Positions 3 through 18,422 of a stretch of DNA of 18,422 nucleotides are shown piece by piece. The notes under the pieces were generated by a model. It saw only the letters and a list, made by a program, of their open reading frames with translations, had not been told where the DNA came from and made no database searches. Source of the stretch: an uncultured Porphyromonas sp. (GTDB lineage Bacteria; Bacteroidota; Bacteroidia; Bacteroidales; Porphyromonadaceae); contig CAKMOP010000200.1 in the NCBI GenBank assembly GCA_927910985.1, positions 1-18,422 on the forward strand. The letters run 5' to 3'. The position numbers and the translations under genes are program-made. The stretch's first letter is position 1; the number at the start of each line of letters is the position of its first letter.

Positions 3-692
3 TACTCTTTCTTTAGAAGTCAAGAATACTCCAAAGGTAGTGGTGAGTTTATTGCTCCTGGCTCAGATATTATCGGAGAGACAGCATCTCTGGTTCGGTC
101 ACTTGAGGACACGATAGATGTGGGAACTCTGCTATATCGAGGTCGTCCAGAAGATGGAAATGGGCCATATAGTTTTTTTGGAGAACTGACTGCTCCTCCA
201 GTAGAAGCAGCAAAGGAAAACAGGATGAGTCCTTATGGTATTTCTATGTTCTATGGATCATACGACAAGGAGACCCCTATTAAGGAGATAAAGAATTACC
301 TCAAGAACAAGGATACAAGAATATACCTAGGAGAGTTTGAAGTCACGAAAACCCTAAAGGTGATCAACCTATGCAATACCCCACAGCCTGATTTCTGGAT
401 GGGGAAAGAAGGAGATTGGCAAATCTTCGCTTTCCTCCGTGCTTTCCATAAGGAGATTTCGAAACCCGTCGGCACGAATGACCCTAAATTAGAGTATATC
501 CCATCTCAAGTATTCTGTGAGTATCTTAGGCATATTCAAAAAGCAAAGGATGGCTCGTCCTACGATGGCATAGTTTACTCGAGTGCTATGACCAACGAAA
601 AGAACGTTGTGTTATTCTATGATAATAAGGGAAGTGTAGATGTTCTCAAGCTGAAGAGTGCAAGTATAGTCGACCCTGAAAACCATAATTGA
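3..692 (+). CDS. RES-domain protein, 5' end cut off by window edge
   Basis: The reading frame is open from the first bases of the window to the TGA at 690-692, so the gene begins upstream and the GTG at 120 is only an internal codon. From about 120 the protein matches the RES domain: an early LLYRGR arginine motif, SAPP-like TAPP, the RMSPYGISMFYGS segment, then KEI and the late GIVYSS serine motif. RES proteins studied as toxins of Xre-RES toxin-antitoxin pairs degrade NAD+. This one carries at least 39 extra residues before the RES core, as in RES proteins with an N-terminal helper (HEPN-like) domain, but too little is visible to name it. No antitoxin gene follows it; any partner would lie upstream. 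The gene is visibly richer in A and T than the mannosidase and chelatase genes, which hints at transfer. Family assignment is fairly sure; toxicity is not shown. Confidence 0.72.
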   Translation, partial: YSFFRSQEYSKGSGEFIAPGSDIIGETASLVRSLEDTIDVGTLLYRGRPEDGNGPYSFFGELTAPPVEAAKENRMSPYGISMFYGSYDKETPIKEIKNYLKNKDTRIYLGEFEVTKTLKVINLCNTPQPDFWMGKEGDWQIFAFLRAFHKEISKPVGTNDPKLEYIPSQVFCEYLRHIQKAKDGSSYDGIVYSSAMTNEKNVVLFYDNKGSVDVLKLKSASIVDPENHN

Positions 693-740: not shown

Positions 741-1147
741 GGGGATGACCTGGCTTTGACAGCGCGATGAAGTGGTTTGTAAGCATGTAGTGCAAGGCTT
801 GTGAGCACTCTAATCTCATAGAGCGACAATTCAACTGGCGAAAACAATTACGCTCTCGCTGCGTAACCGAATAGAGTAGGTTTGACGCTTCATCACGACG
901 ACAGACTGTTGTGACGAGACATCACTCAGGTAGCCGTTCTCACCGAGGCGACTTGATCATAGTGGTGCCGGAAAATCGGAGACTGGCCCAATGCTTGCCC
1001 TTGGCTTGGGAGTGTATTTAGAGGGATAAGGCACTGCCTATGGTAGCCTCAGTCGCGGGTGGTGCACGAAAACTCAAAGTGAGGATAAACATGTAGAAAG
1101 CAGATTGGTTCCGTGTTTGGACCGGGGTTCGACCCCCCGCATCTCCA
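741..1147 (+). ncRNA. ssrA: transfer-messenger RNA (tmRNA)
   Basis: tmRNA rescues stalled ribosomes and tags the unfinished protein for degradation. The 5' end GGGGATG pairs over 7 bp (one G-U) with CATCTCC at 1140-1146, leaving the discriminator A at 1147; CCA is not encoded. The T-arm is visible as CCGGGGTTCGACCCC just before it. The 5' half shows the usual tRNA-like D-arm text GACCTGGCTTTGACAGC. The tag frame resumes at GGC 837-839 and reads GENNYALAA, ending in TAA at 864-866; this is the Bacteroidales-type tag with the LAA end recognised by ClpXP-type proteases. The 407-base length and the single uninterrupted molecule are typical. The resume codon is assigned by comparison with known tags, not proved. 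Confidence 0.95.
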
Positions 1148-1161
1148 CACCTAAGGCTCTT

Positions 1162-4014: not shown

Positions 4015-4059
4015 CCGGGAGCGTGGCCTTTATTTATCGATTGTATCGGCCTTTTTATT

Positions 4060-4067
4060 TAATTTTG
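4060..4067 (+). promoter_or_regulatory. Candidate promoter -7 box for the corrinoid operon
   Basis: TAATTTTG fits TAnnTTTG and lies about 40 bases before the riboswitch core, where a promoter is expected. A TTG at 4041-4043 lies 16 bases upstream, slightly short of the usual 19-21 spacing. Confidence 0.45.
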
Positions 4068-4107
4068 TGGGCATACCTGACGGGAAGATTCCCTGTCTTA
4101 GGTGTGT

Positions 4108-4290
4108 ATGCTGGAGGTTCTACCCTCGCTCTGTATTCTGCTGCGAGGGCAGATTAAAAGGGAAGCTGGTGCAAAACCAGCGCTATCCCCGTAGCCGTGA
4201 GGTCATCATGGTGCTACTATGAGCCACTGCCCTATACTGGGGTGGGAAGGCGTAGTACTTCGGACTGAGCCGGAAGACCTGCCTCCAGCC
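4108..4290 (+). promoter_or_regulatory. Cobalamin (B12) riboswitch
   Basis: The conserved core is present in order: GGAAGCTGGTGCAAAACCAGC, CCCCGTAGCCGTGAGG, GAGCCACTGCC, GGTGGGAAGGC and the B12 box GAGCCGGAAGACCTGCC at 4266-4282. An enclosing P1-type helix pairs GCTGGAGG (4110-4117) with CCTCCAGC (4282-4289). Riboswitches of this class bind cobalamins and turn off transport and synthesis genes when the vitamin is plentiful. It sits 210 bases before the first gene of the corrinoid operon, all of whose genes run in the same direction, so it is expected to control the whole set. The Rfam model would settle the exact ends. Confidence 0.95.
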
Positions 4291-4499
4291 TTTAAGCTTA
4301 ATAAAGCGTAGGCGACCAGCGATTGTCTGTGTTTTTGCCTACTCTACGGACTCTCGGGTAGAAGAGCTGGAGCTTGGTACATAATAATACCATTAGGGTA
4401 ATGGGGCTTCTCACGAAGTGACCTGACAGCGCTTACCCTTCCTCTATGCCTCTACTCGCATATTGATGTGATTTGTCTTGCGATAGCGTTTGGCATAGT
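4291..4499 (+). promoter_or_regulatory. Long leader between riboswitch and first gene
   Basis: No gene is seen here. Several small hairpins can form: GTAGGC (4308-4313) with GCCTAC (4337-4342), TCTAC with GTAGA (4343-4362), the perfect CCATTA-GGG-TAATGG (4390-4404) and CTTC-TCAC-GAAG. This stretch probably holds the expression platform, but no hairpin has a clear T tract, so I cannot say whether control acts on transcription or on translation. Confidence 0.45.
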
Positions 4500-5672
4500 A
4501 TGAAACTCAGTACATCCATCTTTATAGGGATACTTTCCCTCTTTGTTAGCCTTACCTCCTGTGGCCGAGGTCAGCAGCACACGCAGTCGGTTGATACGAT
4601 CTTGGAGCGTGATTCCATAGATTTCAATTTTCCTGTCACTGTGGAGTATGCGCACGGATTCACCGTAGCCAATCACCCAGGATATAAGGAGCTCGTCATG
4701 TATAAGCCCGGTACACGTGATACCGTCGCCGACTATATTTTGTATCCTCGCAGTAGTGAGCAGCCCAGAGTGGCACATCCCCAAGCTGTATATATTCCTG
4801 TCCCTGCGCGCAACCTTGCGACCAGTTCCTCGCCCCATGTAGGAGCTGTCGCTGTCTTGGGCCTGCAGCATGTGCTTGTTGCCGTGTCTGATCCAGAGAA
4901 GGTCAATGACAGCCTGACGCGTCGCCGTATCCAAGAGGGTAAGGTGCAGCGTATAGGACGTGGCATGAGCAAGGATATAGAGCGCATCATCGCCCTCAAT
5001 CCAGATATCTATCTACAAGACTTGTATAGTGGTACGGAGAAGGATACGGATCTGGTGGCATCAGGGATCAATATTGTCTACTTCAATAACTGGAAGGAGC
5101 AGGATATGCTTGGGCGAGCTGAATGGCTTAAGGTCATAGGCTTGCTCTATGGACGCAATGCTGTAGCTGACTCCGCCTTCCGTCAAATGGCTGCTAATTA
5201 TCAGCTAGCAGCCAAGCAGGCTAAGGGAACTTCTCAAATTGTACCTGTCATGTATGGGTTGGACTATAAGGGCGTCTGGTACGTGCCAGGCGAATACTCA
5301 TACATTGTCAAAGCATTCTCTGATGCAGCCATTAGCTGTGACTTCATCCCAGGGCAAATAGATAGCCGTCCCAGTAGCTTCGAATATGTCTTTCGGCGCA
5401 ATCAGCATAAGAAGATATGGCTTTGCTTGATGACGGGTAAGCTGGAGAAGCTCTCGGACTTCCTTGCGCTCAACGAACGCTACATTCATTTTGATGCTGC
5501 GCGTGAGGGGGAAGTGTGGGTAGACCGCAAGATGCTCAATCAAGAGGGCGGTAATGACTTCTGGGAGAGCGGCCCCTATCATCCTGATTTAGTCCTCAAG
5601 GACTTCATCAAGATAGCTCACCCCGAGCTTCTCCCGGGCTATGAGACTCGCTACTGGATGCGTCTTAGGTAG
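4500..5672 (+). CDS. Lipoprotein substrate-binding protein of a B12/iron-type ABC importer (BtuF-like)
   Basis: I chose the ATG at 4500, not the one at 4473, because it gives a proper lipoprotein signal: MKLSTSIFIG, a hydrophobic core and the lipobox LTSC with Cys21 as the lipidated residue. The next residues (GRGQQH) lack the acidic cluster that exports lipoproteins to the surface in this phylum, so it probably faces the periplasm. The body reads as a class III (cobalamin/siderophore/heme) binding protein: VGAVAVLGLQHVLVAVSD, then IERIIALNPDIYLQD and a second lobe after VVPVMY-like IVPVMYGL. Being the first gene after a B12 riboswitch makes a corrinoid the likely ligand. No permease or ATPase gene accompanies it. 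A heme-binding role as in related Porphyromonas loci is the main alternative. Length 390 residues is on the long side for BtuF. Confidence 0.8.
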   Translation: MKLSTSIFIGILSLFVSLTSCGRGQQHTQSVDTILERDSIDFNFPVTVEYAHGFTVANHPGYKELVMYKPGTRDTVADYILYPRSSEQPRVAHPQAVYIPVPARNLATSSSPHVGAVAVLGLQHVLVAVSDPEKVNDSLTRRRIQEGKVQRIGRGMSKDIERIIALNPDIYLQDLYSGTEKDTDLVASGINIVYFNNWKEQDMLGRAEWLKVIGLLYGRNAVADSAFRQMAANYQLAAKQAKGTSQIVPVMYGLDYKGVWYVPGEYSYIVKAFSDAAISCDFIPGQIDSRPSSFEYVFRRNQHKKIWLCLMTGKLEKLSDFLALNERYIHFDAAREGEVWVDRKMLNQEGGNDFWESGPYHPDLVLKDFIKIAHPELLPGYETRYWMRLR

Positions 5673-5774
5673 CCACATACAATGCACTTCATCATTCCGG
5701 CCTTTAACCCGTCTCCATCCACGATACTTCGCAAATAATGTCCTCTCAGCCCTATCGCATCCTCTATATCCTGG

Positions 5775-8700
5775 ATGCACAATACTGCTGTTGCCCCCTC
5801 GGAAGATGATCCCCGACTTCAGGTCGACAGACTTGCTATCTCCCGCCTCAATGAGGGAGATACCAGAGCCTGGGCACTGACGGAGCAGGCACACTTCATC
5901 CTCGTGCTGACGCATGGATCGGTCTCTTGCTTTAGAGGGCTGCAGCGACTTATCTCAGGACTGAGGATGGAGCAGACACTCTTCGTACATAATAATATGG
6001 AGGATGAGTGTACAGCCTTGATGCCGCAGCTACGCCTGAGTGCTGCTGACTACCTCACGATACAGCGCTATGTCAAGTGCTACGACAAGACTAATGCAAC
6101 CCAACTGCATCGCTTCCTTGCCGCACGATTTGGCGGATTCAATTGGGATTATGCCCCGGCGCGATATCCTCGCTGGCATGGGCTCTATGGTTATAGTGAA
6201 GAGGAGGAGCCTCAGCGCTTAGCAGAGGTCATAGAGGCTCGGAGGACAGGGCGGATTATCATCGGACTGATTATACCTTTCTACCTCTATCGATCCGATA
6301 ATCTCCGTCATGTGGATGCTTTGCTCGCAGTACTCCAGCGCCAGGGAGTGGAGTCGCATGCTCTGTTTTCCACGGGAGCGGAAGACGCTGTGACGGGGGA
6401 GCAGGGTATTAGCTATGCGCTTGATCGTTACTTCCGTAGCGAAGGAGAGGTCTTACCTCACTGCATCATCAATCTGATGCCCTATGCTTTGGTATCTTCG
6501 AGCGTAGTGGTGCGATTTATACTCAGCCGGAAGATGCCTCTACAGGTATCCTCCGTCAGCTGGCGCTTCCCGTCCTGCAGACTTATGCAACGAACTATAG
6601 TGCAGAGGAGTACCATAGTCGTGTAGATGGACTGGATACCATTGGCCTGATCTCCAGTGTTTGCTATCCCGAACTTGATGGACAGGTAGATGCCTACCCA
6701 TTGCCACACGCGAGCTGAACGAAGAGGGACTGCCATACTTTGCTCCGCTCGATGACGAACTCCAATGGGTCGCCAGGCTGTCTGTACGCTGGGCGCAACT
6801 ACAACGCAAGCCTCAAGAGGAGAAGCGCATTGCGATTATCTTCCACAATATGCCTCCGCGCAACGATAGTATAGGTTGTGCTGCGGGCTTGGATAGTCCA
6901 GCCTCGGTCTACCACCTCATCAATAGGCTACGCAAAGAGGGCATAGACCTACCGCACCATTATGCTGATGGAGATGATATCATTAGGCAGATTATCCGTG
7001 CGGTGACGAATGATCACTCTTGGCTGGATCCTCGAGAGGTGATAAGACGTGCTGTGGATCGTATTCCCTCGAAACTTTATGAAGGATGGTTCGATGCACT
7101 CACTCCAGAGGTACAGCAGCGCTTGGTCGCCTCTTGGGGAGAAGCCCCAGGGACGTTTCATGTCGTGGAGGGGGAGATGCCTGTGCCTGGGATGATCAAT
7201 GGGAACGTCTTCATCGGCTTGCAACCACCTCGAGGCTATGAGGAGCATGCTGAAGCCATCTACCACAGTACGGATATAGTCTGTCCCCATTACTACATAG
7301 CTTTCTATCGCTGGATACGCTATGTCTTCCAGGCTGATCTCTTCATCCATGTCGGTACGCACGGGTCGCTGGAGTGGCTACCAGGTAAGGAAAAGGCCCT
7401 CTCTTGCTCCTGCTTTCCCCAGCTCAATACGCTGGATATGCCCCACCTATATATCTACCATACGGCAGTCATAGGCGAAGCTATTCAGGCGAAGCGTCGC
7501 TCGGCAGCCGTCTTGCTCCATCATATGGAGCCGGCAATGCGCGAAGGGGGAACTTATGGCCCCTTGGCAGAATTTGATGTACGACTCAATAGCTACATCA
7601 GTGGAGCTGTCGCCGAGAGTCAACGTCCTATACTACGTGAAGCCCTCCTTGAAGAAGCATGCTCCTTAGAGCTGCATCAAGACCTTGGCTATTCACGAGA
7701 AGGCGATGTCGAAGAGAATTTCTTCATTGAGCTTCATAACTGGCTCGCGGATCTCAAAGCCTCTATGGTGCGTGATGGCTTGCACATCTTCGGTCAGCCC
7801 CCTATGGAGGAGCGGATGGAGGCGAGCATACGTATGCTGCTCCGCTTGCCGCACGGATCGGTGACGACCTTGTTGGATGGTCTGGCTCGATACTATGGCT
7901 ATACAGAGGAGTCTTTATTAACGGAGCTCGATGCTAAGATAAGCCCAACGCATACGGCATCGATGATGATCGATGAACTGACGGAACGAGGGCAACAGCT
8001 TATTGAAGCTATGCTTGCGGATGGCTTTATAGCACAGCCTGCAGGCGAGCTGTTACAGACGATACTTGGTGATTGTCTCGGAGAGGAGAAGTCTTTGCGA
8101 GGCGTCTTACAGCTTGCGATAGATGAGGTCTATCCACGTCTCTGTCGCATCACCGAGGAGTTGGATCACTGTGCCCTCGGCGTGCGTGGGGGCTTTGTCC
8201 CGCCTTCTAAGGGAGGTAGTCCGAGCAGAGGTCAGTTGGAGATTCTCCCCACAGGGCGCAATATGTATGCGATCGATCCCAGTGAGATCCCCTCACATAC
8301 GGCCTATCAGATAGGTGTACGGCTTGGTCAGCAGCTCTTGGAGAAGCATCTTAATACCTCTGGAAGTCTACCTGAAAGCACTGCTTTTGTTCTCTATTCA
8401 GGTGACCAAATGCGTACCCATGGCGAAGATATTGGTGAGATACTTTGGTTGATGGGGCTGCGTCCTCAGTGGCTCAGTGAGCACTCCGATAAGGTCATCG
8501 GTCTGGAGGTTATCCCCTTGTCAGAGCTCGGACGTCCTCGTCTGGATGTCGTGTCGCGTATCTCAGGGCTCCTTCGTGATACTTTCCCGACACTGATCAC
8601 GCTACTTGACGAGGCGGTTCAGCTTGTGCTCTCCCTTGATGAGCCTATAGAATCGAACTGGGTGAAAAAGCACTATGAGGAGGAAGTGGCAGAGCTTCGA

Positions 8701-9468
8701 GCTGCAGGGATAGATCCAGAGACAGCACGCCAAGAAGCTAAGCTCCGAGTCTTCGGTTGTCCTCCAGGTACCTATGGTGGGGGGGTAGCTGTTTTGGTAG
8801 AGACTAAGCAATGGCAGAGTAGTGATGATCTTGGTGAGACGGCTATTACCTGGGGGTGTCATGCTTATAGCCAAGAGCTACACGGCCGTGTATCTCGAGG
8901 GGCTTTTGAGCGTAAGCTTGCTCGGGTCGAGGCGACGGTCAAGAATCAGAATATCATTGGCTTTGATCTCTATGATATTGATGACGAATACATCTATCAC
9001 GGAGGAATCATCGCTGCCGTAAAGAAGCTACGAGGTCAGGCTCCTATGTCTTATTATGGTAACACTTCTGATCCTCGGCATAGTGTCGTGCGTACGCTTT
9101 CAGAAGAGTCGGCACGGGTGCTACGCTCACGCCTTCTTAATCCCCTGTGGATCGAGGGGCTTAAGCGCCATGGATATCGTGGAGCCTATGATGTGGCGTA
9201 CAATATGGATAATGTCTTTGGGTGGGATGCTACTGCGGATAGTGTCTTGGATTGGAACTACGAAGCCCTTGCCTCGCATTTCATAGGAGATCCCGCTAAT
9301 CGAGAGTGGCTTGAGTCCGTCAATCCGTGGGCGCTCTATGAGATAGCTCAGCGACTCTTGGAGGCTGCCCAGAGAGGTATGTGGCAAGCTAAGCCCGAGA
9401 CAATAGAGATGATTACCGAGATATACCTCTCCAGTGAAGGGGTGCTTGAAGAAGGTGCTTCGGGATAA
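5775..9468 (+). CDS. cobN: CobN-like cobaltochelatase large subunit, frame broken at two sites
   Basis: CobN is the large, tetrapyrrole-binding subunit of the ATP-dependent cobaltochelatase and a relative of BchH/ChlH and HmuS. The protein is read in three frames: 5775 to about 6490, then about 6488-6699 (reading FGIFERSGAIYTQ...VCYPELDGQVDAYP), then about 6697-9468 (ATRELNEEGLPYF...). The joined product is about 1,230 residues, a normal CobN length. Diagnostic segments are MPPRNDSIGCAAGLDSPAS (from 6850), the histidine motif HVGTHGSLEWLPGK (7348-7389), and FGCPPGTYGGG (8752-8784). Each break is repaired by adding one base to a short run (TTT at 6488, CCC at 6697), which points to sequencing errors; a recent pseudogene is the alternative. 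The start is uncertain: ATG 5738 in another frame begins MSSQPYRILYILDA, a plausible first beta strand. The next three genes supply the ATPase partners. Confidence 0.88.
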
Positions 9469-9563
9469 TTTATCGGATGCCTCCTTTTTAGGCTGTACCT
9501 CTCGACAGCATTCCAGTCCGTGACTCATTAGCTTTTACTCGTCCCCGAAATATCTTTCTTATT

Positions 9564-10532
9564 ATGTCTTCCTGCACAGCTTCTGTGGACTCGATCACTC
9601 ATCCTTATTATTTCCCCTTCTCTGCTATCGTGGGGCAGGAGAAGATGAAGCGAGCGCTACTGCTCAATCTCATAGATCCTACGCTCGGAGGGGTGCTTAT
9701 CCTCGGAGAAAAAGGTACAGCAAAGTCGACTATTGTACGAGCTTTGAGTCAACTCCTCGAGGGACTCTCCGTTATAGAGCTACCTATAGCTACGACGGAG
9801 GATAAGCTCGTTGGCTCGATCGATGTGGAGCATGCTTTGTCTACGGGAGAGCTGCGCTTCTCTCCCGGTATCTTGGCTCGTGCTCATAAGCAGATTCTCT
9901 ATGTCGATGAGGTGAATCTCCTCGAGGACTACTTGGTCGATATCCTCTTGGATGTCGCAGCTATGGGCGTCAATCATATAGAGCGTGAGGGGATCTCCCA
10001 TAGTCATCCCGCACGCTTCACGCTCATCGGGACGATGAATCCCGAAGAGGGTAGTCTGCGGCCTCAGCTTCTTGATCGCTTTGCCTTGTCCGTAGAAGTG
10101 TGCGGGGAGCGAAATGTATCTGCCCGCTGTGAGGTGCTCCAGCGACGACTCGACTACGAGCGAGATCCTCAGAGCTTCTGTGCTCGCTATCGGGAGGAAG
10201 ACGAAGCCCTCGCTGGACGGGTGCGCCAAGCTCGCTCGCTTCTGCCCCAGCTGCGCTACACTGAGCCTCTGCTGGAGCTTATTGCTCGTCTGGGTATCGA
10301 GCTGGAGGTTGATGGACATCGCTCGGATATTATGTTGCTCAAGGCGGCCTTAGCTACCGCAGCTCTCGAAGGAGCTACGGAGCTCAGCGTTGAGCACGTC
10401 TATACAGCAGCAGAACTGGTGCTTCCTCACCGACTGAGGCGTTTGCCTTTTGAAGAGCGTTACTTCGCTGCCGAGGATATTCGTCAGCTGTGTGAGCGCT
10501 TGTTCGAAGAGTGTGTAGCTAAGCTGCAATAG
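9564..10532 (+). CDS. BchI/ChlI-type AAA+ ATPase subunit of a metal chelatase
   Basis: This 322-residue protein is a full-length magnesium-chelatase subunit I homologue; together with a D subunit it forms the ATP-driven motor that drives metal insertion by a BchH/CobN partner. Family features are clear: the opening [14 protein letters not shown], Walker [10 protein letters not shown] (48-56), Walker [11 protein letters not shown] with D115 and E116, the family insertion [15 protein letters not shown], sensor-1 TMNPEEG with N159, and the arginine finger R172 in LLDRF. All catalytic residues are present, so it should be an active ATPase. It follows cobN by 95 bases and precedes the next gene by 10. 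True cobaltochelatases of aerobic bacteria use CobS and CobT instead, so this is the BchI-type variant. The start is the first ATG, with no obvious Shine-Dalgarno sequence. Confidence 0.9.
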
Positions 10533-10542
10533 GCGATAGGTA

Positions 10543-11376
10543 ATGAGGATGCATAGCTTCTCTCAGTGGATAGGTGTGGAGGTAGCACGCCAGGCGCTTA
10601 TCATTACTCTGATCCGCAGGCAAGGAGCAAGTCTTCTCCTGAGCGGAGGCAGTGGTACGGGTAAGTCGATGCTACTCTCTTGCGTCGCCTCGATGTATCC
10701 CGAGGACGTAAGCTACCTACCACTACACCTGAGCCCAGAGATGCTCTATTCGGGGTATACACTGGATGCAAAAGGGGAAGTGTGCTTGTCTTCTGGCTTC
10801 CTTGCTCGGCTTGAGGGGCGTATCTTACTGGTGGAGCAGCTTCCCCTCCACAGTCGTGAGCTACTTGGTCAGCTGATGGCGTATCAAGAGCAATTGCCTG
10901 AAGAGAAACGCTGCACGCTCATAGCGACCACTAATCCCGAGGAGGGAGCTGTCGCTTCAGCTCTGTTGGATAAGTTTGATCTCTTCGTGGAGCTCCACCC
11001 TACGATGGATATAGCTCTGCGTAAACGTATCCTCAGTGAAGCCCTCCGCATTCCTAAATCAGATGAGGATATGACTTTTCTTAGCCTGATGGAGGCAGCA
11101 CGCCAGCGCTTTGAAGGAATGCAGATGGGGAAGGAACTGCAGAAGTATGTCGTTCAACTCTGTGTTGATCCTCTGACTTTAGGGCATAGAGGTGAGTTGG
11201 CTTTGGCTCATAGCGCTCTGGCATGGGCTGCTTGGCAGGGAAAGCGACAGGCAGAGCGGGGCGATGTCGATGCTGTCCGTCAGTTAGCTTTGGCTCATCG
11301 CTGGCTGGAGACGCACCCTGAGTACCCTGCAGAGCTGCCCGAAGATGGAGCACAAGCGCAGGGATCCCTCTACTAA
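10543..11376 (+). CDS. Degenerate AAA domain protein, N-terminal half of a split BchD/ChlD
   Basis: The 277-residue protein aligns in layout with the AAA domain of chelatase subunit D. It keeps Walker A GGSGTGKS (35-42) and the sensor TTNPEEG (N131), but Walker B is ILLVEQLPL, with E98-Q99 in place of the Asp-Glu pair, and the arginine-finger position in LLDKF is Lys144. Loss of these residues is typical of BchD, whose AAA ring is structural rather than catalytic. The protein ends in a PAELPEDGAQAQ tail where the acidic, proline-rich linker of BchD would begin, and the next gene supplies that linker and the VWA domain on another frame, overlapping by 32 bases. It starts 10 bases after the bchI-like stop. 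Either ATG at 10543 or the one at 10549 could be used. Confidence 0.82.
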   Translation: MRMHSFSQWIGVEVARQALIITLIRRQGASLLLSGGSGTGKSMLLSCVASMYPEDVSYLPLHLSPEMLYSGYTLDAKGEVCLSSGFLARLEGRILLVEQLPLHSRELLGQLMAYQEQLPEEKRCTLIATTNPEEGAVASALLDKFDLFVELHPTMDIALRKRILSEALRIPKSDEDMTFLSLMEAARQRFEGMQMGKELQKYVVQLCVDPLTLGHRGELALAHSALAWAAWQGKRQAERGDVDAVRQLALAHRWLETHPEYPAELPEDGAQAQGSLY

Positions 11377-12415
11377 TCGTCAGGAGGAAGGGGAGTCGGA
11401 TGGCGAGAAAGACGCAGAGATGACGAGTGGAGAGGTTAACCCTGTGACTTCTGCCGAAGAGACAAACAACTCCCAGGACGCCTCGCACGCAGAGGACGGG
11501 CAGCAAGATGTTCCGATGATCCCTCCGCTTCAGTCGCCGCCGAAGGAAAATCCCCATACTTCGAGCAGAGCAAGCTTACAGCAGGCCAAGGAGGCTTATC
11601 TACTGCATCACCCCTTGGATATACGGGAGCGTAGGCTGAAGGAATCTCTGGGGTCGGGGCGTCGTCTTTATAGTGACCAGCCGAGTCAGCGAGGTCGCTT
11701 AGGGCGTGTGCGCCCATACAGTACTCGGAGCTCCCAGCTCTCCCTCCCTGCTACGATACGTGCAGCTATTCCCTACCAATATCTACGTCAGCGCTATCTC
11801 AAGGCGTCTTCTACGAAGCTTTGCATCCATCCAGAAGACTACCGTAGTAGGCTGCATCATCACCGTGGCGGGTATCATATCCTCTTCGTCCTGGATGTCT
11901 CGGGATCTATGGGCGTGCGTGAGCGGATGAGTCTCGTCAAGGGAACTATCATCGAGCTACTAAAGGAAGCTTATGCCAAGCGTGATAAGGTCGGGCTCAT
12001 TACGTTCGCTCAAGATGAAGCGGAGCTGCGTCTGCCGTTCACGCATAGTGCTGAGCGGGCTGCGCACTTGATGCAAGATATTCGTACGGGAGGACGTACA
12101 CCACTATGGCTCGCCATAGAGCGTGCTGGCGAATATCTGGATGCTGAGCGACGCCGTGTGGCGGAATGCCTTCCTGTGGTGCTTCTCCTGACTGACGGGA
12201 GAGCAACCTCGGCACAGCGTAGCGAGAATCATGCGACGCGTATAGTCGAGGCGGCCAAGATGCTGCAGCGTCGCTGTCACCGCTGCCTCGTCATAGACAC
12301 TGAGTGTGGCTTCATTAGGCTCCAGCAAGCGCGCCATCTCGCTGAGTCGCTCCATGCAGAATACTATCATTTGGATGAGTTGGCTCAGTTACGTAGCCTC
12401 CTTCATCCCCGCTAA
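11345..12415 (+). CDS. VWA-domain protein, C-terminal half of a split BchD/ChlD
   Basis: Residues 1 to about 75 form a low-complexity acidic, glutamine- and proline-rich segment (EEGESDGEKDAE ... IPPLQSPPKENP), the BchD/CobT-type linker. A basic region follows, then an integrin-I/von Willebrand A domain from about 175 to 345. The metal-binding MIDAS site is complete: DVSGSMG (D184, S186, S188), T252 in GGRTPL and D284 in LLTDGRAT. In magnesium chelatase this domain contacts the I ring and the H subunit. The ATG lies inside the end of the previous gene in the +1 frame, so the two proteins together equal one BchD of about 620 residues. Translational coupling is likely; a single-base insertion splitting one gene is the alternative. 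It stops 12 bases before cbiZ. Confidence 0.87.
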   Translation: MEHKRRDPSTNRQEEGESDGEKDAEMTSGEVNPVTSAEETNNSQDASHAEDGQQDVPMIPPLQSPPKENPHTSSRASLQQAKEAYLLHHPLDIRERRLKESLGSGRRLYSDQPSQRGRLGRVRPYSTRSSQLSLPATIRAAIPYQYLRQRYLKASSTKLCIHPEDYRSRLHHHRGGYHILFVLDVSGSMGVRERMSLVKGTIIELLKEAYAKRDKVGLITFAQDEAELRLPFTHSAERAAHLMQDIRTGGRTPLWLAIERAGEYLDAERRRVAECLPVVLLLTDGRATSAQRSENHATRIVEAAKMLQRRCHRCLVIDTECGFIRLQQARHLAESLHAEYYHLDELAQLRSLLHPR

Positions 12416-12427
12416 ATCCTATTGACA

Positions 12428-13591
12428 ATGGCTCAATCAACTTCTCATTCCTTGAGTGTAGGCTCCGAAGAGTTGCTTTTTCATACACCGATGGGTGACG
12501 CTGTGTACTTTGCACGAGAGGCTATGATTATCTCTTTTGCTGGGCGACGTGGTGTCGTGAGTAGCTCTAATCTTAATGGAGGGTATCGCAATGACCTGCG
12601 CTCTGTGTTTAATCACAGTGTTGGGCGTGACCCTAATATTTTGCAGAAGCGCTGCCCTGGACTCAAGGGTGCGAATATCATAGAGCACTATGCGGTCATC
12701 GCCTCAGAGCTGGGCTTAGATCCAGAGCATACGACGGGGATGGGTACAGCTGCTCTGATCGAGAATCACGCTCGAGCTGAGCGCACCTATCACGGCGTGA
12801 CCGTGCAGGCCATAGCTACTGCCGGTATCGATGTCAATGGAGGTCGTGCCGGGGACAAGGCCAGTTATGATGAGTTTGAGCAGCGAAGCCTATTGCCTCC
12901 TCCTGGTACAATCAATGTATTCCTATTTATTGATGCGTATCTTGATCCAGGGGCACTTACCCGTGCGCTCATTACGGCTACCGAAGCTAAGACTGTTGCC
13001 CTGCAGGAACTGATGGCTCCGAGTCGCTATTCGGAAGGACTGGCGACGGGATCGGGAACAGATAGCCTCATCGCAGTCTGCAATGAAGAATCTCCCGTTG
13101 TCCTCTACGGGGCGGGAAAGCATGTCCTTCTTGGTGAGATGATCGGTCAGTCTGTCAAGGAGGCTGTGACGAAAGCTCTGGATCGACAGTCCGGGATGAA
13201 TGCTCAGCGGCAAAGCTCGTTCCTCCAGCAAGGAATACGCTACAGGCTGGGGATTGAGGATCTTCTTGCTCTTTATCAAGCACGTTATCTGGCGAGTGCT
13301 CAGGACGAAGCGACTCTTCGGGCGGCACTCCATCGACTTGCCTCCGATAGCTACCTCTGCGCTGCCGTTGCTTCGATTCTCCATCTTGTGGATCAGTGGC
13401 GATGGGGGCTTATCAGCTGGGCGAGTCTTATGGACTTGTCACAGCTTACCTTCTCCTATGTCTCCCAGCGCTACCGACTGGATCCCTGTGAGCTCTCGAT
13501 AGAGCAAGGCCAAATTCCTTGCTATGAACTCATCTTAGGCGAGCTGCGCAGCCTCCTGATTCTACTCCTCTATAGAGAAGTAGGCTCTTAA
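12428..13591 (+). CDS. cbiZ: Adenosylcobinamide amidohydrolase CbiZ
   Basis: CbiZ hydrolyses the amide bond joining the aminopropanol side arm to the corrin ring, giving adenosylcobyric acid, and so allows scavenged cobinamide or pseudo-B12 to be rebuilt with another lower ligand. The signature segments are SSSNLNGGYRN (45-55), TTGMGTAA (102-109), ATAGIDVNGGRAGD (130-143), GLATGSGTD (204-212) and YGAGKHVLLGEMIG (227-240). I chose ATG 12428; a TTG two codons earlier is possible but less likely. The recognised domain ends near residue 255, and about 130 further residues, mostly helical in look, have no function I recognise. The gene lies 12 bases after the VWA gene and 47 before the receptor gene, so it belongs to the same transcript. 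CbiZ in the operon shows that it handles imported corrinoids rather than only de novo synthesis. Confidence 0.88.
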   Translation: MAQSTSHSLSVGSEELLFHTPMGDAVYFAREAMIISFAGRRGVVSSSNLNGGYRNDLRSVFNHSVGRDPNILQKRCPGLKGANIIEHYAVIASELGLDPEHTTGMGTAALIENHARAERTYHGVTVQAIATAGIDVNGGRAGDKASYDEFEQRSLLPPPGTINVFLFIDAYLDPGALTRALITATEAKTVALQELMAPSRYSEGLATGSGTDSLIAVCNEESPVVLYGAGKHVLLGEMIGQSVKEAVTKALDRQSGMNAQRQSSFLQQGIRYRLGIEDLLALYQARYLASAQDEATLRAALHRLASDSYLCAAVASILHLVDQWRWGLISWASLMDLSQLTFSYVSQRYRLDPCELSIEQGQIPCYELILGELRSLLILLLYREVGS

Positions 13592-13638
13592 CTATAATCA
13601 ACTTAGTATATATATTCACCTCTTAACTAAAAACACTT

Positions 13639-15813
13639 ATGAAGAAAACATTGCTTCTTCTTGCGGCGATAGCTCCAGCGACGGCTGTAGCTCAGATCGC
13701 AAGTCCAGACAGCATCTCCACGCATGAGCTGGACAAGGTACTTGTCTACTCTACGCGAACAGCAGTGCCACTCAAGCGCGTGCCAGGGAAGATCGAAGTC
13801 ATCCGCCCCGAAGCTATTGCGACGTCTGGCCTCAAGGATCTGACAGATCTGCTCAAGAATAAGAGTTCGGTCGACGTCATCCAGTACCCCGGCTTCCTCT
13901 CCAATGTCGGTATACGAGGATTCATCCCCGACTTCTCTCGCTCGAGATATGTAGCCGTGCTCATCAATGGGATCCCCTCGGGTACGTCCAACTTATCGAC
14001 CCTCTCCCTGAATGGGGTAGAGCAAGTCGAGGTACTGAAGGGCCCCTTCTCCTCGATCTATGGCACGAATGCTATGGGTGGCGTTATCAATGTCATCACT
14101 AAGCGACATAATGGTCCTCTTACAGGGACTTTCACGACCTCGGGGGGATCGTTCGGCACGGGCTATGGTATGGTGAGCTTTGGCGGTGGGATCACGGATC
14201 GCCTTTCCTTCGACCTCAGTGCCTCCTATGAGTCTCAAGCTCGTAGTTATACCGTAGGGAAGAATAACTTCCTCAAGACAACTGCTCTGGAGAATGCTAT
14301 CTTGGATCCCACCAAGAAGGGGGCTGTAATGCCAGGCTCTACTTATGGAGTCGTCAAGGCGAATGCTCGCTTAGGCTATCAGTTTAGCGATGAGTGGTCG
14401 CTTCACATCTTCGAAGACCTCTTCCACGGTGATGGGATTCTGAATGGTGGATCCATTTGGGGCGTCTATGGAGCGAGCAAGAAGGATCTCAATCGCTCTA
14501 TGACCTCCGCTGAGCTGCGTGGTCGTCTGGGAAATAATCTCTTGACCTTCACTCCCTACTATTCGCGTGAGCAGAGTGATAACTACAAGGTGGGGACAGA
14601 GCCGGAGTACCGTAATAATTCTTCTGTGAGCACCAGCTGGGGAGCGATCCTACAGGATGAACTTCGCTTTGATGCTCATCGCCTTGTCCTCGGCTTGGAT
14701 ACGCGTAATCAAGATACGGATACTCGTAATTTCAAGGCCGATGGCTCAAGTGCCGTGCCTTATCAGCCTAATGTCTCCACGAGAGGATTGGGGCTCTTCG
14801 CTCAAGGTCACATTAGCCTGTTGGCTGATGCCCTCAATATCTCTGCTGGTCTGCGCGCTGACTTTATGAATCTCAGCCTCAAGGATAATGCCGATCTGCG
14901 TAGTAAGGCTTCGACGGAGTCCTTTAGTACCCTGAGCCCTAATCTCGGTCTCAAGTATGAGCTCGCTAAGGGCTTGATGGCGCACGCGAGCATTGGTTCT
15001 GCTTTCTCTGCTCCCTCTGCCTATGAGAAGGCGGGTGAATATCAGACCGCCTATGGGGTGACGCGTGGCAATGCAGCCCTCAGACCTGAGACTTCGCTGA
15101 CTTATGATCTGGGACTCAGCTATACGAATCGTGATCTGGGGGTTCAGCTTGATGCGACTTACTTTGATACGCAGCATCGTCAGAAGATCGTGAAGAAAAG
15201 TGCTGGCACCCTGGATGCTCTTGATGTGCAGGGACATAAGATCTTAGATAAGAATGGTCAGCCCAAGCAGCTCGCAGTGACGACCTTTGAAAATGCCGAT
15301 AAGGCACATATGAATGGTCTGGAGCTGGTGGCTTCGTATGACTTCGGGAGCCTTGTAGCTTATCGTTACTCCCTGCGCGCCTATGTCAATGCTACCTTTA
15401 TGTTCGATAGTCGCTATCTGCCTAAGGGAAGCACAGCTTGGACACAGCTGGAGTCCATCCGTAAGCAGAATGTCACCTTTGGACTCGAGTATAAGGCTCC
15501 CTATGGCTTGGAGCTGGGGCTGACAGGTCGTTATCTCGGTAAGCGCTATGAACATAACTGGTTCGGCTATTATCCGAATGTGCGTGTAGGTCTCTCTGAG
15601 CTGAATCAAAAAGAGATGCCCGAGTTGGCAGCCGCAGGTCAGCTTTTGCATCCTGCCGCACTCGTCTGGTCTGCTTCTGCACGCTACGATGTCACGAAGC
15701 AGCTGCGTGTAGGAGCGAACCTCCACAATATCTTCTCCGAATACTATACGGAGAAGGATGGCTACCATATGCCAGGGCGTTCGATCCAGTTCTCTGCATC
15801 CTACCGCTTCTAA
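13639..15813 (+). CDS. btuB: BtuB-like TonB-dependent outer-membrane corrinoid receptor
   Basis: The 724-residue protein starts with a signal peptide (MKKTLLLLAAIAPATAVAQ, cut near residue 19). A likely TonB box, DKVLVYS, lies at 32-38. The plug domain runs from about 45 to 157, with NVGIRGF and the family motif GPFSSIYGTNAMGGVINV at 135-152. The rest is a 22-strand barrel with alternating aromatic strands, ending in SFSASYRF-like FSASYRF with the terminal Phe needed for barrel assembly. Such receptors use TonB energy to take up large scarce ligands; the B12 riboswitch and CbiZ upstream argue for cobalamin or other corrinoids, though sequence alone does not exclude heme. It lacks the long N-terminal extension of SusC proteins, and there is no SusD or BtuG-like gene beside it. 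It is the last gene before a strong hairpin. Confidence 0.87.
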   Translation: MKKTLLLLAAIAPATAVAQIASPDSISTHELDKVLVYSTRTAVPLKRVPGKIEVIRPEAIATSGLKDLTDLLKNKSSVDVIQYPGFLSNVGIRGFIPDFSRSRYVAVLINGIPSGTSNLSTLSLNGVEQVEVLKGPFSSIYGTNAMGGVINVITKRHNGPLTGTFTTSGGSFGTGYGMVSFGGGITDRLSFDLSASYESQARSYTVGKNNFLKTTALENAILDPTKKGAVMPGSTYGVVKANARLGYQFSDEWSLHIFEDLFHGDGILNGGSIWGVYGASKKDLNRSMTSAELRGRLGNNLLTFTPYYSREQSDNYKVGTEPEYRNNSSVSTSWGAILQDELRFDAHRLVLGLDTRNQDTDTRNFKADGSSAVPYQPNVSTRGLGLFAQGHISLLADALNISAGLRADFMNLSLKDNADLRSKASTESFSTLSPNLGLKYELAKGLMAHASIGSAFSAPSAYEKAGEYQTAYGVTRGNAALRPETSLTYDLGLSYTNRDLGVQLDATYFDTQHRQKIVKKSAGTLDALDVQGHKILDKNGQPKQLAVTTFENADKAHMNGLELVASYDFGSLVAYRYSLRAYVNATFMFDSRYLPKGSTAWTQLESIRKQNVTFGLEYKAPYGLELGLTGRYLGKRYEHNWFGYYPNVRVGLSELNQKEMPELAAAGQLLHPAALVWSASARYDVTKQLRVGANLHNIFSEYYTEKDGYHMPGRSIQFSASYRF

Positions 15814-15837
15814 GTTCAAGCAGTCCCTCCTTTATCG

Positions 15838-15877
15838 CAAGGGGCGTCGAAGGCTACTCCGCCTTCGGCGCCCCTTG
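15838..15877 (+). terminator. Strong hairpin closing the corrinoid operon
   Basis: CAAGGGGCGTCGAAGGC at 15838-15854 pairs with GCCTTCGGCGCCCCTTG at 15861-15877, a 17-bp stem with one G-U pair and a 6-base loop. It begins 24 bases after the receptor stop codon. The T content after it is modest (TGGCTTTGGG), so it may work as a weak-tail terminator or an RNA 3' end stabiliser. Confidence 0.72.
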
Positions 15878-16317
15878 TGGCTTTGGGCTTTGGTGTAATG
15901 TGTTTCCTTCTGTCTTTCCTCCGTTGATCAGAGGCTTGTTATCTCATCTCTTTATATTTTTCCTCGGTGCTACTGATATGAGATGAAAAACTGAGGGAAG
16001 AGGTCTACGAAGCACCATTGGAAAGTAAGTATTCCAGCTTTGGAAAAGCAACTTTCCAAAGCTGGACAGAATCCTTTCCTCGGGAGGTAAGTACTTCGAC
16101 TCTTTTCCTTCCTCTTATTGAACAGGGGTATGGGGCCGTACAGATCAATGACCCAGACTGGGAAAGTAAGCATTGAGTCTGACGGATTCTATTGTAGAAT
16201 CCTATCTGGATCTCGTGTCTTGTTGGGATATCTCGAGGAGGTGAAGGGTGCTGTGTGTGACTCGAGCTGTGACGAGAAGAGTAGATCAGTGCAACTCTCT
16301 TAGGAGAATCTATCGTA
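15878..16317 (+). other. Gene-free stretch with hairpins and a diverged repeat
   Basis: No credible gene is seen in 440 bases. The small open frames here lack family features and run into the rpsL promoter. The stretch holds a loose CCTCGGT/ACTGAGG helix (around 15963-15995), a perfect 13-bp stem at 16034-16065, a perfect 8-bp stem at 16184-16202, and two related copies of a short unit. It may encode a structured RNA or be a decayed element. Confidence 0.4.
16020..16203 (+). repeat. Two diverged copies of a small hairpin unit
   Basis: Copy A (16020-16075) and copy B (16161-16203) both begin GGAAAGTAAG(T/C)ATT and end AGAATCCT, with a hairpin in between. In A the stem is CCAGCTTTGGAAA/TTTCCAAAGCTGG (13 bp, perfect); in B it is GGATTCTA/TAGAATCC (8 bp, perfect). 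A weaker match, AGGTAAGTACTT, sits between them at 16086. Two copies are too few to name a family. Confidence 0.45.
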
Positions 16318-17558: not shown

Positions 17559-18422
17559 ATGGCTGATAACAAACACTTAGAGCTCACGAGAAATATCGGT
17601 ATCATGGCCCACATCGATGCCGGTAAGACGACTACGTCTGAGCGTATCCTCTTCTACACAGGGCTGACCCACAAGATCGGTGAAGTACACGATGGTGGTG
17701 CTACGATGGACTGGATGGAGCAGGAGCAGGAGCGTGGTATCACGATTACCTCCGCTGCTACGACTACCTTCTGGAACTACGACAACACCAAGTACAAGAT
17801 CAACCTCATTGACACCCCAGGACACGTTGACTTCACGGTCGAAGTAGAGCGTTCGCTCCGTATCCTTGACGGTGCTGTGGCTACCTTCTGTGCTGTCGGT
17901 GGTGTACAGCCTCAGAGTGAGACTGTATGGCGTCAGGCGGACAAGTACCGCGTACCTCGCGTGTGCTACGTCAACAAGATGGACCGCTCCGGTGCTAACT
18001 TCTTCGAAGTAGTACGTCAGGTCAAGACCATCCTCGGTGCTACCCCTTGCCCCATCCAGATCCCTGTAGGGCAGGAAGAAACCTTCCGCGGTGTCGTCGA
18101 CCTCGTCACGATGAAGGCTCTTGTATGGGATGATGAGACGATGGGTGCTCACTACGACATCATCGACATCCCCGCCGAACTGCAGGCAGAAGCCGAAGAA
18201 TGGCGCGACAAGATGCTCGAAACGCTCGCTGACTGCGATGACGTCCTGATGGAAAAGTACTTCGAAGATCCTTCGACGATCACCGAAGATGAGATCCGCG
18301 CTGCTATCCGTAAGGGTACGCTCGCTATGCAGATCAGCCCCATGCTCTGCGTTCTTCCTTCAAGAACAAGGGCGTACAGACCCTCCTTGACGCTGGGGTC
18401 GCAGCTTACCTCCCAGCCCAAT
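17559..18422 (+). CDS. fusA: Elongation factor G, 5' part, with a one-base error near the window end
   Basis: EF-G is the GTPase that moves tRNA and mRNA through the ribosome. The visible part covers the G domain: G1 AHIDAGKTT (17-25), the RGITIT switch (59-64), G3 DTPGH (85-89) and G4 NKMD (139-142). It runs off the window, so the C-terminal two thirds are missing. After Cys264 (18348-18350) the text reads GTTCTTCC where the family needs GGT TCT TCC; adding one G restores [16 protein letters not shown] second missing C is likely near 18410, where CTCCCAGCCCA would become the expected LPSP. Since the gene is essential, these are best read as sequencing errors at a poor contig end. It begins 15 bases after rpsG. 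Confidence 0.95.

What the first reader, a model, noticed from the sequence alone, without database searches (positions are those of the whole stretch)
4108..15813. B12-riboswitch operon joining a three-part metal chelatase, CbiZ and a corrinoid importer
Seen: one same-strand series headed by a cobalamin riboswitch, with a binding lipoprotein, CobN, BchI, split BchD, CbiZ and a BtuB-like receptor, and a hairpin after it. Known: CobN with an ATPase pair normally puts cobalt into a late corrin intermediate of the aerobic B12 route, while CbiZ acts in salvage. No ring-building gene is present, and the host looks like an anaerobe that would use the early, ATP-free chelatase route. Inference: the chelatase may act on imported corrinoids, for example inserting cobalt into metal-free rings, swapping a wrong metal, or pulling metal out. 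HmuS, a CobN relative of Bacteroidales, has to my memory been reported to remove iron from heme, so removal is not far-fetched.
Basis: partly seen in the sequence, partly recalled or inferred. Interest (0 to 1): 0.75.

Follow-up and report, generated by a model that had tools for sequence, protein, structure and literature searches.

The report
Vitamin B12 salvage operon with cobaltochelatase
An oral Porphyromonas bacterium carries a vitamin-B12-controlled gene group that pairs uptake genes and a B12-remodelling enzyme with an ATP-driven cobalt-inserting enzyme; similar groups are already reported in other anaerobes, and what the cobalt enzyme acts on remains to be shown.

Summary
The operon is real: cobalamin riboswitch, binding lipoprotein, CobN, ChlI, ChlD, CbiZ, TonB receptor, strong hairpin. 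Details change. The window comes from a close relative of Porphyromonas pasteri. Its cobN holds three frame changes and the "split" chlD one; ChlD is one gene in all seven relatives with the operon. Assembly error is likelier than decay, not proven. The ABC permease and ATPase found in six of those relatives are missing here and in P. pasteri. Ring-building genes exist elsewhere: all seven operon-bearing genomes carry CbiC, CbiD, HemC and a cytoplasmic early chelatase CbiK; none has a CobG match. So CobN is an extra ATP-driven chelatase beside the early-insertion route. It groups firmly with CobN, not HmuS or BchH, and lacks the second HmuS histidine. Best explanation: cobalt insertion into corrinoid rings during salvage. 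Comparable gene groups and that idea are in print (Dehalobacter operon-2; Chlorobaculum tepidum, second-hand): a new member of a known kind. Side lead: among 30 ring-making Porphyromonadaceae, cytoplasmic CbiK was found in 16 of 16 genomes with HemC and 0 of 14 without, which hold exported CbiK instead.

The parts
4098..4300 (+). cobalamin riboswitch aptamer (RF00174)
   Evidence: 112.2 bits, full model; also upstream of the operon in 6 of 7 relatives (none in G024 even at E <= 1)
4500..5672 (+). periplasmic-binding lipoprotein (BtuF-like), start taken at the ATG at 4500
   Evidence: PF01497 88 bits; 95% identical in P. pasteri
5738..9468 (+). cobN, cobaltochelatase large subunit; three frame changes between 5738 and 6850, open from 6850
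   Evidence: PF02514; frames; pieces cover residues 1-371 of intact P0002
9564..10532 (+). chlI/bchI, AAA+ ATPase subunit
   Evidence: TIGR02030 361 bits and TIGR02442 413 bits, both below their cut-offs; Walker motifs visible by eye in the translation
10543..12415 (+). chlD/bchD, AAA-like part plus VWA part (MIDAS-like DVSGSMG), one frame change near 11350-11400
   Evidence: single frame in 7 of 7 relatives
12422..13591 (+). cbiZ, adenosylcobinamide amidohydrolase with an unassigned C-terminal ~140 aa
   Evidence: PF01955 185 bits; C-terminus without a Pfam match at E <= 10; alignment
13639..15813 (+). TonB-dependent receptor (heme/hemoglobin-receptor subfamily by score)
   Evidence: PF00593 and PF07715; TIGR01785 326 bits, above cut-off
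15835..15880 (+). strong hairpin after the operon, without a T tract
   Evidence: not listed by the terminator scan, which requires a T run

Best explanation
This is a B12-riboswitch-controlled corrinoid salvage operon that includes a class I cobaltochelatase (CobN with ChlI and ChlD as ATPase partners). Low B12 turns it on. The receptor and binding protein bring in a corrinoid (a permease and ATPase are in the operon of 6 of 7 relatives; in the P. pasteri lineage they are lost, and a second importer 20-25 kb away in P. pasteri could serve). CbiZ cuts the side chain off the ring so that it can be rebuilt. CobN-ChlI-ChlD uses ATP to put Co(II) into corrinoid rings that arrive or end up without cobalt or with a wrong metal, as a supplement to the cell's own CbiK-based synthesis. 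Shown: gene identities, regulatory element, gene order in relatives, CobN family placement, early-route genes in relatives. Inferred: substrate, direction of the reaction, and that the window's own copy works.
For: Riboswitch and conserved gene order. CobN occurs only in genomes with CbiZ: 7 of 7 with CobN have CbiZ, against 6 of 30 without, Fisher p = 0.0002, not corrected for phylogeny. The 7 genomes already have cytoplasmic CbiK, CbiC, CbiD and HemC, so the early step does not need CobN. CobG in 0 of 37 family members, so no aerobic late-insertion route was detected. CobN clade placement 99/98, and inside it an anaerobe clade 100/100. The chelatase parts that could be compared (cobN from 6850, chlI, two parts of chlD) are under selection: dN/dS 0.07-0.12 between window and P. 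pasteri. Dehalobacter restrictus operon-2, with riboswitch, transporters, two CbiZ, CobN and Mg-chelatase subunits, rises 346-fold in transcripts on corrinoid starvation (PMC4285132, passages including the abstract).
Against: No biochemical test of such a complex turned up in the papers I saw. CobN is confined to genomes that can make their own ring (7 of 16 ring-makers with HemC, 0 of 14 without; p = 0.007, not corrected), whereas a pure salvage role would predict the opposite; of the 6 CbiZ-bearing genomes without CobN, 5 lack HemC. The receptor scores as a heme/hemoglobin receptor, not BtuB. The riboswitch was not found in 1 of 7 relatives (G024). The permease gene is interrupted by an in-frame stop in another (G023). 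The only CobNST substrate described in the passages I saw is hydrogenobyrinic acid a,c-diamide (PMC7689651). A supply of cobalt-free corrinoids in the mouth is not known to me.
Confidence: 0.5

Rival explanations
1. CobN-ChlI-ChlD is a second, ATP-driven cobalt inserter for the cell's own synthesis, acting at the sirohydrochlorin/precorrin stage or another internal stage as a back-up to CbiK when B12 is low.
For: Within Porphyromonadaceae CobN is found only in genomes with HemC and cytoplasmic CbiK (7 of 7), and in none of the 14 ring-makers without HemC. In 3 of 4 genomes with the order lipoprotein-permease-ATPase-CbiZ but no CobN, HemC is missing (G005, G010, G026; the fourth, G035, has HemC but no receptor next to the genes and no detected riboswitch).
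Against: CobN travels with importer and CbiZ genes, not with the hem/cbi genes. 9 of 16 HemC-bearing ring-makers do without it. CbiK is reported to work at in vivo cobalt levels while CobNST needs CobW at limiting cobalt (PMC7689651, passages).
Confidence: 0.18
2. The chelatase removes metal: it strips cobalt or a wrong metal from imported corrinoids or other metallo-tetrapyrroles.
For: A superfamily member, HmuS, does remove iron from heme (PMC12583661, passages and section 14). The receptor scores as a heme/hemoglobin receptor.
Against: CobN is outside HmuS with full support. HmuS His1209/Glu1212 (LSLDHxxEFMGG) are replaced here by Asp and Ile in YDIDDEYIYHGG. The ATPase pair is retained although HmuS needs no ATP. 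P. pasteri already has its own HmuS-type protein.
Confidence: 0.1
3. In this strain the operon is decaying: cobN and chlD are inactivated and the transporter pair has been deleted.
For: Three single-base frame changes in cobN and one in chlD. Permease and ATPase lost in the window and in P. pasteri; the receptor gene is mostly deleted in P. pasteri (345 of 2175 window bases align).
Against: dN/dS is 0.07-0.12 in the chelatase parts compared, all but chlI and the first part of chlD lying downstream of frame changes. The essential gene fusA at the window's end also carries frame-breaking length differences, which points to assembly errors, although these lie in the last ~70 bases. An intact homologue cluster with 1751 member sequences exists, its representative 95% identical to the window's 872 aa.
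Confidence: 0.3
4. The operon handles a non-corrin tetrapyrrole (heme-like or cobalt porphyrin) and the chelatase acts on that.
For: Receptor in TIGR01785 above cut-off in the window, G023 and G026.
Against: B12 riboswitch and CbiZ in the same operon. Receptor scores are below the TIGR01785 cut-off in G012 and G032, so the label is borderline. CobNST is reported as cobalt specific (PMC7689651, passages).
Confidence: 0.1

Closest known systems
Dehalobacter restrictus operon-2 (syntenic in Acetobacterium woodii; PMC4285132, passages including the abstract)
   Same: cobalamin riboswitch, ABC corrinoid transporter genes, CbiZ, CobN and Mg-chelatase subunits in one operon; CobNs named Dehalobacter and Acetobacterium are 39-42% identical to the G012 relative's CobN and fall in the same clade
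   Different: two CbiZ, no TonB receptor mentioned in the passages seen; D. restrictus has a truncated cbiH, P. pasteri has an open CbiH-CbiC fusion
Chlorobium/Chlorobaculum cobN-bchH-bchI-bchD beside cobalamin transport genes (PMC8620254, passages; citing Eisen 2002, not held here)
   Same: CobN with I and D subunits beside transport genes and CbiZ; early-insertion route present; the idea of cobalt insertion into acquired cobalamin already voiced there
   Different: includes an extra BchH-like large subunit; CobN 37-41% identical in the eight loci I take for Chlorobia
Aerobic cobaltochelatase CobNST or CobN-ChlID
   Same: large subunit family and AAA+/VWA partner pair
   Different: no CobG detected in the family, anaerobic pathway genes instead
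HmuS heme de-chelatase
   Same: same superfamily, HxGTHG motif
   Different: separate clade, membrane anchored, no ATP needed, second-histidine motif absent here (PMC12583661)

Membership tests
Class I cobaltochelatase (CobN type) | large subunit in the CobN clade, apart from BchH/ChlH and HmuS | tested here: met
   ML tree of 27 rows, CobN clade 99/98, window with P. pasteri 100/100; quick tree of 55 rows agrees
Class I cobaltochelatase (CobN type) | AAA+ ATPase subunit plus VWA-bearing partner | tested here: met
   AAA_5, AAA_lid_2, VWA hits; chlD interrupted by a frame change in the window, one frame in 7 of 7 relatives
Class I cobaltochelatase (CobN type) | intact large subunit gene in the window | tested here: not met
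   three frame changes before 6850; the open 872 aa score 724 bits against the TIGR02257 cut-off of 822
Class I cobaltochelatase (CobN type) | ATP-dependent cobalt insertion | not testable with these tools
   needs biochemistry
Aerobic (late-insertion) B12 route | CobG present in the lineage | tested here: not met
   0 of 37 Porphyromonadaceae at E <= 0.001, and 0 of 61 genomes over the cut-off; CobZ not tested
HmuS de-chelatase | LSLDHxxEFMGG motif with His1209 and Glu1212 | tested here: not met
   YDIDDEYIYHGG at those columns; motif from PMC12583661 section 14
HmuS de-chelatase | N- and C-terminal membrane anchors, hmu operon, no ATPase partners | tested here: not met
   alignment with the intact P. 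pasteri copy, neighbours; anchors judged by eye
Cobalamin riboswitch (RF00174) | score above Rfam gathering threshold | tested here: met
   112.2 against 31.5 bits
CbiZ amidohydrolase | PF01955 above cut-off | tested here: met
   184.6 against 27 bits
BtuB (TonB-B12 receptor) | TIGR01779 above cut-off | tested here: not met
   125 against 599.7 bits
BtuFCD importer | binding protein with permease and ATPase in the operon | tested here: not met
   only the binding protein in the window; permease and ATPase in 6 of 7 relatives, the G023 permease with one in-frame stop
Riboswitch corrinoid-salvage operon with CobN (Dehalobacter operon-2 kind) | riboswitch, transporter, CbiZ, CobN, I and D subunits together | tested here: inconclusive
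   window: all but permease and ATPase, with cobN and chlD frame-broken. Relatives: full, unbroken set with riboswitch in 4 of 7 (G012, G014, G031, G032); G023 has a broken permease, G024 no detected riboswitch, P. pasteri no permease, ATPase or whole receptor gene

The most novel reading that the evidence does not exclude
Anaerobes that already own the early chelatase CbiK keep a separate ATP-driven cobalt-loading machine for environmental corrinoids: it repairs imported rings that lack cobalt or carry a wrong metal, so that metal-free or mis-metallated corrinoids count as a usable B12 source.
Probability: 0.33. Interest if true: 0.7.

Novelty: new member of a known kind. Interest (0 to 1): 0.42.

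Why it matters
Why anaerobes with the early cobalt route keep CobN is, as far as I found, an open question (PMC6461909, passages, notes that the chelatases are not exclusive to either pathway). Porphyromonadaceae offer a natural comparison: a like importer-CbiZ operon with and without the chelatase in genomes of known pathway content. If CobN loads imported rings, cobalt-free corrinoids become part of B12 sharing in the mouth and gut.

Tried and rejected
Rejected: CobN as a replacement for CbiK (cytoplasmic CbiK present in 7 of 7). My first reading of the weaker CbiK scores in G001, G012, G014 and G024 as heme-binding lipoproteins was wrong: these copies have no signal peptide. Rejected: CobN as HmuS or BchH. 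Rejected: split chlD as a natural or programmed arrangement (single frame in 7 of 7; chlD frameshifting known from PMC9227772, passages). Promoter and terminator scans were near chance (9 found against 11.5 expected; 10 against 7.7). The order-wide survey gave little: 1 of 393 drawn genomes has this CobN. A structure prediction was not run: intact CobN exceeds the 1200-residue limit. Literature searches on P. pasteri with cobalamin (3 papers listed) and on metal-free corrinoids (10 of 17 listed) showed no test of this complex in the listings; searches for cobN with cbiZ, chlI, riboswitch (9 listed) and for cobaltochelatase, Porphyromonas, riboswitch, CbiZ (20 of 113 listed) gave the two papers cited as prior art.

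That the eight phylum-level CobN loci are Chlorobia is my inference from their BchH-like neighbours. Signal peptides were judged by eye; one CbiK fragment at a contig end in G019 has no N-terminus and was left out, as was the frame-interrupted match in G052, which lies outside the family. Fisher tests ignore relatedness. In one search the G426 genome (53% complete) of the family was left out, so n is 37, not the 38. The phylum list was cut at its low end.


Full report
What is there. The window carries a cobalamin riboswitch at 4098-4300, followed on the same strand by a binding lipoprotein, cobN, chlI, chlD, cbiZ and a TonB-dependent receptor, then a hairpin of -43.3 kcal/mol that none of 200 shuffles reached. 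Upstream lie a tmRNA and a glycoside hydrolase family 2 gene; downstream rpsL, rpsG and fusA (the ribosomal genes and fusA named from their sequence, recalled).

Whose genome. The window's own assembly is not held. The nearest named match is Porphyromonas pasteri JCM 30531, 98% identical over the 872-residue open part of CobN; window 4053-13832 is 91.5% identical to it in DNA. Synonymous divergence is 0.23-0.66 in seven gene segments and 0.09 in cobN, which suggests a close relative rather than the same species. What I say about the rest of the genome rests on P. pasteri (G001) and other relatives.

State of the genes. cobN begins near 5738 and changes frame three times before 6850; the pieces cover residues 1-15, 15-251, 251-321 and 321-371 of an intact 1243-residue homologue at 92-94% identity, so no stretch of it is left uncovered. 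chlD has one frame change. Compared with P. pasteri these are single-base length differences (3 in cobN, 1 in chlD). Two facts favour assembly errors: fusA, an essential gene, also has frame-breaking length differences, though within the last ~70 bases of the window, and dN/dS is 0.07-0.12 in the chelatase parts compared. I put recent real decay at about 0.3.

Missing transporter genes. In six relatives (G012, G014, G023, G024, G031, G032) two genes lie between the lipoprotein and cobN: a FecCD-type permease and an ABC ATPase; in G023 the permease is interrupted by one in-frame stop. They are absent in the window and in P. pasteri, where cobN follows the lipoprotein directly. P. pasteri also retains only the ends of the receptor gene (345 of 2175 window bases align). 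It has a second set of binding protein, permease, ATPase and receptor 20-25 kb away, which could supply the missing parts.

Pathway context. All 7 genomes with this CobN have CbiC, CbiD, HemC and a CbiK without signal peptide. In P. pasteri one cluster holds CbiK, CbiM, an ECF-type ATPase protein, HemA, HemC and a CysG-HemD fusion, and elsewhere CbiB, a CbiJ-CbiD fusion and a CbiH-CbiC fusion. The CbiK, HemD and CbiJ parts score below their NCBIfam cut-offs (142 against 400, 118 against 275, 126 against 130); the CbiK label leans on PF06180. HemB, HemL and the remaining cbi steps were not checked in P. pasteri. CobG, a marker of the aerobic route, had no match in 37 of 37 family members.

What kind of CobN. 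In a careful tree of 27 proteins the window protein falls with P. pasteri (100/100), within an anaerobe CobN clade with Clostridium, Dehalobacter and Acetobacterium proteins (100/100), inside CobN as a whole (99/98). Six HmuS-type proteins form their own clade (100/100) and include P. pasteri's own; the BchH proteins (Roseobacter and two Chlorobia-like rows) fall outside CobN, not as one clade. A quick tree of 55 proteins agrees. At the columns of the HmuS motif LSLDHxxEFMGG, which holds a histidine proposed as the second heme ligand and its glutamate partner (PMC12583661, section 14), the window has YDIDDEYIYHGG. HmuS does not need ATP (PMC12583661, passages); here the ATPase pair is kept. 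Insertion is therefore the likelier direction.

Distribution. The CobN type is in 7 of 38 Porphyromonadaceae (1878.9 bits or more; next best match 451 bits), in 1 of 393 genomes drawn across the order, and at 1256-1360 bits in 8 of 395 drawn across the phylum, besides P. pasteri itself; two more score 962-989 bits with one in-frame stop. The eight look like Chlorobia (my inference): I and/or D subunits lie near in 7 of 8 stretches, a BtuF-like gene in 5 of 8, CbiZ in 3 of 8, several stretches being cut short by contig ends. In Porphyromonadaceae CobN and CbiZ go together (7 of 7 against 6 of 30). A tree of the binding protein places CobN-bearing and CobN-free operons side by side (G023 with G005/G010/G026, 82/88; G014 with G035, 98/94), while the CbiZ tree leaves those relations unresolved; so the three chelatase genes may come or go as a cassette.

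A result against the simple salvage reading: among 30 genomes with CbiC and CbiD, CobN is in 7 of 16 with HemC and 0 of 14 without (p = 0.007, not corrected for descent). If the chelatase served only imported rings, genomes that cannot make rings should want it most. This keeps a role in the cell's own synthesis alive (0.18).

Is it new? Rupakula and co-workers described a riboswitch operon in Dehalobacter restrictus with transporters, CbiZ, CobN and Mg-chelatase subunits, strongly induced on corrinoid starvation and syntenic in Acetobacterium woodii (PMC4285132, passages including the abstract). PMC8620254 (passages) reports the cobN-bch cluster beside cobalamin transport genes in Chlorobium and quotes a 2002 suggestion that cobalt is inserted into acquired cobalamin. 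The Porphyromonas operon is a new member of that kind. The substrate question remains open and is testable.

A side lead. CbiK without signal peptide and HemC coincide in the 30 ring-makers (16 of 16 and 0 of 14). Those without HemC show CbiK forms with a signal peptide or lipobox (by eye; one fragment in G019 lacks its N-terminus). In G021 the exported CbiK lies in the corrin cluster with a TonB receptor, CbiL, CbiG-CbiF, CbiE-CbiT, CbiH-CbiC, CbiJ-CbiD and an ABC transporter. This suggests that species that lost tetrapyrrole synthesis insert cobalt into scavenged precursors in the periplasm before import, a possible answer to the old puzzle that P. gingivalis keeps corrin genes without precorrin-2 synthesis (Roper 2000, as cited in PMC6461909, passages).

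Noticed in passing
L131 (G021), L083, L075, L077: Among 30 Porphyromonadaceae with CbiC and CbiD, CbiK without signal peptide is in 16 of 16 genomes with HemC and 0 of 14 without; the latter show only CbiK with a signal peptide or lipobox (one fragment in G019 not judged), in G021 beside a TonB receptor and ABC transporter inside the corrin cluster. Suggests periplasmic cobalt insertion into scavenged tetrapyrroles.
   Followed up: partly
window 6600-9000: This part of cobN is only about 1-2% different from P. pasteri while neighbouring stretches differ by 7-14% (synonymous divergence 0.09 against 0.23-0.66 elsewhere): a recent exchange tract between lineages.
   Followed up: partly
L055 15960-16300 (P. 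pasteri): The receptor gene of the operon is reduced to its two ends in P. pasteri JCM 30531.
   Followed up: partly
L199 6229-11569 (P. pasteri): A second binding protein, permease, ATPase and receptor set, 49-72% identical to the G012 operon's genes, without a riboswitch above threshold.
   Followed up: partly
L058 5408-6442 (G023, P. pogonae): The permease gene of the CobN operon is interrupted by one in-frame stop.
   Followed up: no
window 18350-18422: fusA loses frame within the last ~70 bases of the window, probably an assembly error.
   Followed up: partly
L188 (G514) and L189 (G580): CobN-like genes flagged with one in-frame stop in the genome search, near ChlI-like genes; not examined further.
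   Followed up: no
window 741-1150: tmRNA with tag GENNYALAA.
   Followed up: no
window 3-692: RES-domain protein (PF08808) at the window start, often part of toxin-antitoxin pairs (recalled); partner not seen in the window.
   Followed up: no
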